Shown in pieces: positions 6,565 through 8,430 of a stretch of DNA of 64,000 bases. Under the pieces are notes generated by a model. That model did no database searches. It saw nothing but the letters and a program-made list of their open reading frames with translations, and was not told the DNA's origin. Numbering within the stretch: position 1 is the stretch's first letter; each line of letters begins with the position of its first letter. Made by a program: the position numbers and the translations under genes. The DNA comes from an uncultured Gammaproteobacteria bacterium (GTDB taxonomy: Bacteria; Pseudomonadota; Gammaproteobacteria; GCA-001735895): assembly GCA_947260025.1 (NCBI GenBank), contig CAMYON010000001.1, positions 75,410 through 139,409 on the forward strand. Reading direction: 5' to 3'.

Positions 6565-7041
6565 ATGAATCAGATACCGCTGACGGCCGCCGGCGCAGAA
6601 AGGCTAAAACTCGAACTCAAGCAATTGAAATCGGTCAAGCGTCCGGCCGTGATCGAGGCGATTGCGACCGCCAGGGATCACGGCGACCTGAAGGAAAACG
6701 CCGAGTACCATGCTGCGCGCGAAGAGCAGGGCTTTATCGAGGGTCGCATCGCGGAACTGGAAGCGGCGCTGTCTAATGCGCAGATTATCGACGTCACCCA
6801 GCTCAACGTCAGCGATCGCGTGGTTTTTGGCTGTACGGTGGAACTGCTCGATGTCGCAACCGATAAGGAAGTCAGCTACCAGATAGTCGGCGACATCGAG
6901 GCCGATATCAACTACAAGCGGATCGCCATCAGTTCGCCCATCGCGCGCGCATTGATCGGCAAGGAAACTGGCGACGAGGCAATCGTCGACGCCCCGGGCG
7001 GCACCATGGAATACGTCATCGCCGGCGTCGAGTACAAATAA
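6565..7041 (+). CDS. greA: Transcription elongation factor GreA
   Basis: 158 aa, [23 protein letters not shown] motif. Confidence 0.97.
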
Positions 7042-7078: not shown

Positions 7079-7201
7079 GTCCCTTCGACGGCGCGGCCGT
7101 TGTAAATGTTTTTCGGGAACGCCGTGAATACATCCATGTAGGCTGGCGTGCGACATCCCTGTCGCACAGCCTCCCGAAAAACATTTACAACGCCCACGCC
7201 T
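7079..7201 (+). repeat. Structured repeat unit A (123 bp) of an inverted pair
   Basis: GTCCCTTCGACGGCGCGGCC - 20 bp arm - core - perfectly complementary arm - GCCCACGCCT. Arms 7099-7118 and 7172-7191; inner hairpin GTGCGAC-ATCCCT-GTCGCAC at 7148-7167. Confidence 0.9.
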
Positions 7202-7280
7202 TAGCAATACTCGAGCCTGCAATATGTTCGATGTAACTGGTTTAGTCGAGGCAACTAACCTTAACGTCTGGCTATATGAG

Positions 7281-7403
7281 AGGCGTGGGCATCGGTGCTC
7301 TTTTGCGGGACGCTGCGCAACAGGGATGTTGCGCGCGAGGCTACAGGGACGTATTTACGCCGTTCCCGCAAAAGAGCACCGATGACCGCGCCGTCGAAGG
7401 GAC
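7281..7403 (-). repeat. Structured repeat unit B (123 bp), inverted relative to unit A
   Basis: The reverse complement aligns gap-free with unit A over 123 positions. Flanks and core are conserved; arms 7290-7310 and 7364-7384 are perfectly complementary to each other but differ in sequence from unit A. Confidence 0.9.
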
Positions 7404-7447: not shown

Positions 7448-7756
7448 TCAGGCGGCGATTATTGGGGCGAAGCGGTTGGTTTCGCTGTTGGGGCGGTAAA
7501 TGACGATAACACTGCCAATGGTTTCGACCAGGGCCGCGTGGTGATGGTCGCAGATCAGGTTCGCGAGTTCTCGCTTGCCGGGCTTGTCGAGGGCTGGAAT
7601 GCGCAGTTTAAGCAGTTCGTGATGGTCGAGCGCCGTATCGATTTCATGGTGCAGGTTTTCGGACAATCCTTTTTGGCCTATGATGACTACCGGCTTAAGT
7701 TTGAGCCGATGGCCCTCGGCGCGTAGCCGTTTGATTTGTCCACTGGATAATTCCAT
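7448..7756 (-). CDS. yhbY: YhbY/CRM-domain RNA-binding protein
   Basis: MELSSGQIKRLRAEGHRLKLKPVVIIGQKGLSENLHHEIDTALDHHELLKLRI; start chosen at internal Met. Confidence 0.93.
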   Translation of the reverse strand: MELSSGQIKRLRAEGHRLKLKPVVIIGQKGLSENLHHEIDTALDHHELLKLRIPALDKPGKRELANLICDHHHAALVETIGSVIVIYRPNSETNRFAPIIAA

Positions 7757-7785
7757 AGAGATGCGCAGGATAATAGAAAGCGCGC

Positions 7786-8430
7786 ATGTTACCACAGCGA
7801 AGCAATCGAAAAGTGTCACGATCGAAATCCAGTAAGCGCTGGCTGCAGGAGCATCACCAGGATGCCTACGTGCTGAAAGCCCGGGAACAGGGTTACCGTT
7901 CGCGTGCGGTGTTCAAGCTCGATGAAATCCAGCAAAAGGATCACGTCCTCAAGCCCGGGCAGTTCGTGCTCGATCTCGGTGCAGCGCCGGGCGGCTGGAG
8001 TGAATACGCGATTCACGCGGTGGGCACCAGCGGCCGGGTAATCGCGGTTGATCTGTTGCCGATGGAGCCAGTCGCCGGGGTCGAGTTTTTGCAGGGAGAT
8101 TTCACCGAGCAGCAAGTGCTTGATCAAATTCTTGCCCTGGCCGACGGGCGGAAATTCGACCTTGTATTATCGGATATGGCCCCCAATTTGAGCGGTATGC
8201 AAAGCGTGGATCAGCCGAGGGCGATATATCTCGCCGAACTAGCATTCGATCTTGCCAGGGAATTCCTGGCTCCCGGAGGCGTATTTATCGTGAAACTTTT
8301 CCAGGGCGAGGGGTTCGAAGATCTGATAGCAGGCTTTCGACGTACCTTTGTTACAGTCAAATTCCGCAAGCCGGACGCATCGAGGTCACGTTCCAGCGAA
8401 ATTTATGCGGTTTGCAGCGGTCTTAGATAG
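7786..8430 (+). CDS. rlmE: 23S rRNA (uridine-2'-O-) methyltransferase RlmE/FtsJ; true start may be GTG at 7816
   Basis: RSKSSKRWLQEHHQDAYVLKAREQGYRSRAVFKL, SAM motif VLDLGAAPGGWSEYA. Confidence 0.95.
   Translation: MLPQRSNRKVSRSKSSKRWLQEHHQDAYVLKAREQGYRSRAVFKLDEIQQKDHVLKPGQFVLDLGAAPGGWSEYAIHAVGTSGRVIAVDLLPMEPVAGVEFLQGDFTEQQVLDQILALADGRKFDLVLSDMAPNLSGMQSVDQPRAIYLAELAFDLAREFLAPGGVFIVKLFQGEGFEDLIAGFRRTFVTVKFRKPDASRSRSSEIYAVCSGLR

What the first reader, a model, noticed from the sequence alone, without database searches (positions are those of the whole stretch)
7079..7403. Inverted pair of 123-bp structured repeats with covarying stem arms between convergent greA and yhbY
Unit A (7079-7201) and the reverse complement of unit B (7281-7403) align gap-free over 123 positions. 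Outer flanks are nearly identical (GTCCCTTCGACGGCGCGGYC and GCCCACGCCT) and the core is conserved (GGGAACGSCGTRAATACRTCCMTGTAGSCT...ACATCCCTGT...). The roughly 20-bp arms around the core differ in sequence: GTTGTAAATGTTTTTCGGGA in A and CATCGGTGCTCTTTTGCGGGA in B. Each arm is perfectly complementary to its own partner. The small inner hairpin also covaries (GTGCGAC/GTCGCAC versus GCGCAAC/GTTGCGC). This suggests selection for, or a mechanism that maintains, a multi-helix fold rather than the primary sequence. Because the units are inverted, their flanks can also pair with each other and close the whole 325-bp region into a cruciform-like structure. The arrangement resembles REP/BIME elements (paired inverted palindromes at convergent gene ends), but with longer units and swappable arms. 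It may be an undescribed non-autonomous element, a bidirectional 3'-end RNA module, or the target of a RAYT-like transposase elsewhere in the genome.
Basis: partly seen in the sequence, partly recalled or inferred. Interest (0 to 1): 0.82.

Follow-up and report, generated by a model that had tools for sequence, protein, structure and literature searches.

The report
Mobile CsrA-site hairpin repeat, inverted pair
Between two genes sits an inverted pair of a mobile, high-copy repeat found across Gammaproteobacteria (related to the Yersinia repeat YPAL) whose one strand folds into RNA-like hairpins that look like docking sites for the global regulator CsrA, which gives repeats of unknown purpose a testable job.

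Summary
Units A (7079-7201) and B (7281-7403) are inverted copies (77% complementary) with different but perfectly paired 21-bp arms. This is no local oddity. Copies occur in 21 of 95 relatives, up to 45 per genome by covariance model. The core reaches 516 copies in Methylotuvimicrobium buryatense 5G. The greA-yhbY site is empty (6-46 nt) in 15 congeners, so the pair was gained within the genus. The core is identical to that of the published mobile Yersinia repeat YPAL/RU-2. Unit A just passes Rfam TwoAYGGAY. New evidence: arm mismatches are G-U, not A-C, on one strand only (31 vs 1; 101 vs 8 over all loci; again in unrelated arm families and in M. buryatense). Selection therefore acts on that single strand's fold, not on a cruciform. 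On that strand both hairpin loops follow A-N-GGA-X, with A and GGA nearly fixed and N and X free, the pattern CsrA/RsmE contacts. Best reading: a mobile repeat selected as a two-site CsrA-binding RNA. CsrA binding itself is inferred. RAYT, promoter and replichore-bias ideas were tested and not supported.

The parts
6565..7041 (+). greA (transcription elongation factor), left convergent neighbour
7079..7201 (-). Unit A; the GGA (functional-fold) strand is the minus strand
7098..7118 (.). Unit A variable arm (3' arm on GGA strand)
   Evidence: 21/21 Watson-Crick pairs with 7172-7192
7172..7192 (.). Unit A variable arm (5' arm on GGA strand)
7154..7161 (-). Unit A loop 1, CAGGGATG (hexaloop AGGGAU, C-G closed)
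   Evidence: sequence; loop conservation
7131..7138 (-). Unit A loop 2, CATGGATG (hexaloop AUGGAU) inside GCCTACATGGATGTATTCACGGC
   Evidence: sequence; loop conservation; same core in YPAL
7202..7280 (.). 79-nt spacer between the units; inverted together with the units relative to G028
7281..7403 (+). Unit B; the GGA strand is the plus strand
7290..7310 (.). Unit B variable arm (5' arm on GGA strand)
   Evidence: 21/21 Watson-Crick pairs with 7364-7384
7364..7384 (.). Unit B variable arm (3' arm on GGA strand)
7321..7328 (+). Unit B loop 1, CAGGGATG
7344..7351 (+). Unit B loop 2, CAGGGACG, with compensated closing stem GGC/GCC instead of GCC/GGC
7448..7819 (-). yhbY (RNA-binding CRM-domain protein by name), right convergent neighbour
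   Evidence: ORF; orthologues adjacent to greA in most congeners

Best explanation
The feature is an inverted dimer of a non-autonomous mobile repeat of the YPAL/RU-2 - TwoAYGGAY superfamily, inserted between greA and yhbY within the history of this genus. SHOWN: dispersed copies, empty sites, compensated arm evolution, and strand-specific selection on the fold of the strand that carries GGA. INFERRED: the selected single strand is RNA, made when transcription runs through the unit. It folds into a long variable-sequence stem (clamp) topped by two hairpins. These present two A-N-GGA-X loops 23 nt apart, which one CsrA/RsmA dimer can bridge. The element's effect, and the reason its fold and loops are kept, is capture of CsrA (a local hold on the transcript that contains it and, with many copies, a dispersed CsrA sink). 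Arm sequence is free to drift as long as it pairs.
For: Copies: 21/95 relatives by BLAST, up to 45 per genome by model R1, pattern in 37/276 class genomes with 0 in the reversed control, 516 copies in one. Mobility: greA-yhbY gap 6-46 nt in 15 congeners against 413 nt in G000; two further filled/empty pairs, about 410 vs 61 nt and 344 vs 34 nt. Structure: 44 pairs, 31 with both-sided changes; between orthologous sites 63 both-sided Watson-Crick changes, 11 one-sided G-U, 2 broken (some 'changes' reflect inversions or copy replacement). Strand: G-U 31 vs A-C 1 in arms of 48 distinct units; 101 vs 8 (62 vs 5 units) over all type I, 44 vs 10 (25 vs 4) in families with other arms; 34 vs 10 in M. 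buryatense; 55 vs 15 in a named Gammaproteobacteria set. Loops: in both hairpins A and GGA about 98-100% kept while N and X vary, also in M. buryatense, where variant loops keep A and GGA; AGGGAT is the commonest of all C-G-closed hexaloops in 750 kb. Literature: CsrA SELEX RUACARGGAUGU with a six-nt loop, bridging 10-63 nt with optimum >18 (PMC7652899); N and X of ANGGAX are looped out, and AGGGA/AAGGA pentaloops also bind tightly (PMC4005645); CsrA binding already predicted for TwoAYGGAY (PMC4333381). Host: canonical csrA in G000; csrA in 36 of 37 element-positive class genomes.
Against: No binding or expression data. No sigma-70-like promoter in the spacers (0 of 68), so the GGA strand must come from read-through, and in this genus the nearest gene reads the opposite (TCC) strand in 58 of 62 cases. 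In Yersinia the annotated sRNA Ysr224 is the TCC strand. Hairpin 1 stems of 9-10 bp are longer than most SELEX winners. One element-positive genome (G219, 98% complete) shows no csrA. Orientation to neighbouring genes is not fixed outside this genus. A strand-specific ssDNA intermediate would give the same G-U/A-C asymmetry. Related copies are not independent, so the P values overstate.
Confidence: 0.58

Rival explanations
1. A purely DNA-level miniature transposon: the GGA strand folds as single-stranded DNA and an unidentified transposase reads the two loops and the clamp (as RAYT enzymes read REP hairpins). Loops and fold are kept because only such copies spread; any RNA effect is incidental.
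For: Empty/filled sites, very high copy number, inverted dimers, little orientation bias to genes outside this genus. The published relative YPAL is mobile with target duplications of 3-26 bp next to dyads (PMC2229807). Single-strand recognition would also give strand-specific mismatches.
Against: No association with RAYT/Y1 genes (0 hairpins in 118 kb, about 4 expected) and no replichore orientation bias in M. buryatense, which IS200/IS605-type lagging-strand insertion would predict. Freedom of exactly N and X in ANGGAX is what CsrA, not a known transposase, predicts.
Confidence: 0.27
2. A BIME/ERIC-like 3'-end module: the stem blocks 3' exonucleases or polymerase from both convergent genes, and the GGA loops have no protein partner.
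For: 40 of 61 classified units lie between convergent genes and 2 in divergent ones, close to stop codons; very stable stems; YPAL reported to influence upstream transcripts (PMC2229807).
Against: The strand read by the nearer gene is the one with A-C mismatches, i.e. not the selected fold. In M. buryatense copies favour divergent intergenic regions (20 of 49). Loop bases A and GGA would not need to be fixed.
Confidence: 0.11
3. A local inverted duplication or chance palindrome without wider family.
For: Within its own genome this sub-type occurs only here.
Against: Dozens to hundreds of copies elsewhere with a conserved core; compensated changes.
Confidence: 0.01

Closest known systems
YPAL / RU-2 (Yersinia palindromic sequence), PMC2759123 and PMC2229807
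   Same: Same 24-nt core GCCTACATGGATGTATTTACGGCG, preceded by a second GGA hairpin and enclosed by long complementary arms; intergenic, multi-copy, mobile by empty/filled comparison.
   Different: YPAL is ~168 bp with its own flanks and near-constant arms; the units here are 123 bp with other flanks (GTCCCTTCGACGG.../...CCCACGCCT), variable arms and inverted dimers. Target duplications not tested here.
Rfam RF01731 TwoAYGGAY
   Same: Unit A scores 44.0 bits (cut-off 43); two GGA-loop hairpins in one stem; relatives reach 66.7 bits.
   Different: Unit B is below cut-off. Loops here are AKGGAY, not AYGGAY. Rfam treats it as an RNA family; the papers read here do not describe it as a mobile high-copy repeat.
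Rfam RF02770 Ysr224 (Yersinia sRNA)
   Same: Reverse complement of the same core; a Yersinia similis copy scores 126.5 bits.
   Different: Annotated on the TCC strand; unit A reaches only 25.7 bits against a cut-off of 70.
CsrB/CsrC/RsmX/Y/Z CsrA-titrating sRNAs
   Same: ANGGAN loops on short stems spaced for dimer bridging.
   Different: Dedicated sRNA genes with own promoters and many sites; here two sites per unit, no promoter seen, dispersed and mobile.
REP/BIME with RAYT, and ERIC
   Same: Palindromic, intergenic, often inverted pairs at gene 3' ends.
   Different: REPs are 20-40 bp with a GTAG or CGTC end tag (PMC3733652); units here are 123 nt without those end tags and without RAYT linkage.

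Membership tests
TwoAYGGAY (RF01731) | covariance-model score at or above the gathering score | tested here: met
   Unit A 44.0 vs 43 when scanned alone; missed in the whole-window scan with fast filters; unit B not over the cut-off
TwoAYGGAY (RF01731) | two hairpins with AYGGAY loops | tested here: inconclusive
   Two GGA hexaloops in each unit, but AGGGAU/AUGGAU and AGGGAU/AGGGAC: position 2 is G or U
YPAL/RU-2 | core sequence of the published 168-nt element | tested here: met
   Published sequence contains the 24-nt core found by pattern and an upstream CAAGGATG hairpin
YPAL/RU-2 | ~168-bp length with YPAL flanks and arms | tested here: not met
   Units are 123 bp with different flanks and arms
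YPAL/RU-2 | mobility shown by empty/filled sites | tested here: met
YPAL/RU-2 | target-site duplication of 3-26 bp | not tested
   Flanks of filled and empty sites are too diverged to read exact ends
CsrA-binding RNA | ANGGAX loop on a stem, two sites at bridging distance | tested here: met
   A/GGA kept, N/X free in both loops; loop starts 23 nt apart
CsrA-binding RNA | physical binding of CsrA | not testable with these tools
   needs an experiment
CsrB/RsmZ-type sRNA gene | own promoter | tested here: not met
   0 of 68 upstream regions with >=9/12 sigma-70 match; shuffles average 2.6
REP/BIME (RAYT-mobilised) | 20-40 bp unit with GTAG (or CGTC) end tag | tested here: not met
   123-nt unit, ends GTCCCTTCGACG and CCCACGCCT
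REP/BIME (RAYT-mobilised) | copies beside RAYT genes | tested here: not met
   0 GGA hairpins in 118 kb around RAYT/Y1 loci
REP/BIME (RAYT-mobilised) | inverted pairing | tested here: met
   52 of 62 units

The most novel reading that the evidence does not exclude
A class-wide superfamily of transposable CsrA-binding RNA elements: YPAL, Ysr224, TwoAYGGAY and the sub-types seen here are one mobile module that carries two CsrA sites on a clamp of freely drifting sequence. In high-copy genomes (516 copies) it sets the CsrA balance of the cell by copy number, or exploits CsrA for its own spread.
Probability: 0.33. Interest if true: 0.86.

Novelty: new variant of a known kind. Interest (0 to 1): 0.62.

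Why it matters
Palindromic intergenic repeats have been catalogued for decades with little agreement on what they do. Here one superfamily gets a concrete, strand-specific and loop-specific prediction: its GGA strand should bind CsrA. It joins a mobile-DNA literature (YPAL) to an RNA-motif literature (TwoAYGGAY, Ysr224). If right, repeats would be a reservoir of regulator-binding sites whose number differs from species to species, so CsrA network strength could evolve by transposition. The G-U versus A-C asymmetry is also a simple general test for which strand of a palindromic repeat is folded and selected.

Tried and rejected
RAYT linkage: Y1-transposase genes occur in 45 of 57 relatives, but none of 30 loci holds a GGA hairpin. 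Dedicated promoter in the spacer: none. Replichore (lagging-strand) orientation, suggested by the first listed places in G263: rejected with 69 copies in 20 sampled stretches, both strands mixed on both skew signs. Plasmid spread: only chance 28-nt matches in PLSDB. Viral spread: one IMG/VR contig, carrying a YPAL-like copy with Yersinia-type flanks. Divergent extra CsrA paralogues in genomes rich in the element: suggestive only, mostly close relatives. csrA presence/absence as a test: consistent (36/37 vs 206/239) but confounded by genome reduction. A fixed sense orientation to host genes: true only in this genus.

Full report
WHAT IS THERE. The window holds two 123-nt units, A (7079-7201) and B (7281-7403), in inverted orientation, 79 nt apart, between convergent greA and yhbY. 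The units are 77% complementary to each other. Each unit's variable arms (21 bp) are perfectly paired although A and B arms differ in sequence. Each unit folds far better than 200 shuffles (z -9.5 to -10.6).

IT IS A FAMILY. In the window's genome (G000) this sub-type is found only as this pair, but 21 of 95 relatives hold copies. A covariance model built from 22 units finds up to 45 copies per genome. The alignment supports 44 pairs, 31 of them with changes on both sides that keep the pair. Rfam TwoAYGGAY (RF01731) matches unit A at 44.0 bits (cut-off 43) and is over cut-off in 13 of 57 relatives, with three further copies of another sub-type in G000 (C16, C29); none of 14 control genomes has it.

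THE FAMILY IS WIDE. The 24-nt core GCCTACAKGGAYGTATTYACGGCG occurs in at least 120 stretches of named genomes (scan stopped at its limit), among them Yersinia, Stenotrophomonas, Methylotuvimicrobium, Rheinheimera, Halopseudomonas and Marinobacter, each with its own complementary arms. In an even draw of 276 class genomes, 37 have it within two mismatches, the reversed control pattern has none, and one genome holds 516 copies. That genome's contig length, 4,984,547, equals that of Methylotuvimicrobium buryatense 5G. The published Y. pestis mobile repeat YPAL/RU-2 contains exactly this core (PMC2759123). The Yersinia sRNA family Ysr224 is its other strand.

IT MOVES. greA and yhbY lie 6-46 nt apart in 15 congeners and 413 nt apart in G000; element copies sit there only in G000, G028, G023 and G029. 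Two more sites are filled in G030 and empty in G017 (about 410 vs 61 nt, 344 vs 34 nt). In this genus units are nearly always in inverted pairs with a unit of the same or another sub-type (52 of 62). The whole unit-spacer-unit segment is inverted between G000 and G028 (333 bp, 91%), and again between G007 and G009/G002. So the pairs also act as sites of local inversion.

WHICH STRAND IS SELECTED. A double-stranded structure has no strand: a G-T on one strand is an A-C on the other. In the arms of 48 distinct units the strand carrying GGA has 31 G-U and 1 A-C. Over all loci in hand type I has 101 vs 8 (62 vs 5 units), and families with different arms, flanks and cores have 44 vs 10 (25 vs 4 units). 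The named Gammaproteobacteria set has 55 vs 15 and M. buryatense 34 vs 10. Registers were chosen on Watson-Crick pairs only, so G-U was not favoured. Related copies are not independent, but the direction repeats in unrelated sub-types and lineages. The selected structure is therefore the fold of the GGA strand alone: RNA most simply, ssDNA of that strand possibly.

WHAT THE LOOPS SAY. In both hairpins A and GGA are 98-100% kept, while the base between A and GGA (N) and the base after GGA (X) vary; the same holds in M. buryatense, where variant loops keep A and GGA. Among all hexaloops closed by at least five Watson-Crick pairs with a C-G pair in 750 kb, AGGGAT is the commonest. CsrA/RsmE recognises ANGGAX hexaloops in which N and X are looped out (PMC4005645). 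CsrA SELEX gave RUACARGGAUGU, and one dimer bridges two sites 10-63 nt apart, best above 18 (PMC7652899). Hairpin 2 reads UACANGGAXGUA, and the two loops start 23 nt apart. Gardner and Eldai had already proposed CsrA binding for TwoAYGGAY from motif matches (PMC4333381). The genome has a canonical csrA, and 36 of 37 element-positive class genomes have one.

WHAT DOES NOT FIT YET. In this genus the gene next to a unit reads its TCC strand (58 of 62), and no promoter-like sites precede the GGA strand (0 of 68), so GGA RNA must come from transcription that has passed the partner unit. Outside the genus orientation to genes is mixed. That makes a simple cis-effect on the adjacent gene unlikely. 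It leaves read-through RNA, a dispersed sink, or selection at the moment of spreading.

ARMS. Orthologous sites show arms changing in pairs: 63 both-sided Watson-Crick changes, 11 one-sided G-U and 2 broken (part of these reflect segment inversion or copy replacement). At one site with 98% identical flanks, five of 21 pairs differ, none broken and in colinear position. Selection through G-U intermediates explains transitions. Conversion between copies or hairpin-templated repair may help with the rest; this remains open.

VERDICT. Identity (inverted dimer of a mobile YPAL/TwoAYGGAY-type repeat) is close to certain. Selection on the GGA-strand fold is well supported. CsrA as the partner is the best-supported inference but untested. 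A ssDNA transposition intermediate is the main rival; tests for its usual signs (RAYT neighbours, replichore bias) were negative. Novelty lies in the variant, the unification and the strand test, not in a new kind of object.

Noticed in passing
window 7079-7403 vs L014/L039 (G028): The unit-spacer-unit segment is inverted as a block relative to G028 (333 bp, 91%); a second such inversion is seen between G007 (L318) and G009/G002 (364 bp, 89%).
   Followed up: partly
L027, L029, L041, L310-L313, L335-L337: A 15-17-nt mini-hairpin (CGGTCCGACGCTTCGG type) is inserted repeatedly at the same places inside units (bulge after GTAT, or beside hairpin 1), also in the other sub-types; units of 135 and 150 nt alternate between orthologues.
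   Followed up: partly
G000:C16:37263-37790, G000:C29:14731-15262; L020, L043-L054, L098: Two further sub-types with other arms and cores (TGTAGCGAGGCATGGATGCC... and TCAGGCCGCAGGGACGCGGCCTG...) share the plan of two GGA hairpins on a variable stem; one has two separate variable arm segments.
   Followed up: partly
L305 (G002) vs L080 (G030): Flanks 98% identical and colinear, yet 5 of 21 arm pairs differ, four changed on both sides: arms change faster than their surroundings.
   Followed up: no
L378-L389 (G030, G002, G007, G009, G020, G023, G025, G019): Extra, divergent CsrA-like proteins, including two-domain forms (L384, L386), in genomes rich in the element.
   Followed up: partly
G263 = M. 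buryatense 5G, L394-L413: 516 copies of the core, many with other repeats nested in hairpin 1 (CATTCACGCCATCCATGGCG type).
   Followed up: partly
G219: Carries seven pattern matches but no csrA match in a 98% complete genome; worth checking, as it bears on the CsrA reading.
   Followed up: no
L222 (IMG/VR contig): A YPAL-like copy with Yersinia-type flanks lies in a contig classed as viral.
   Followed up: no
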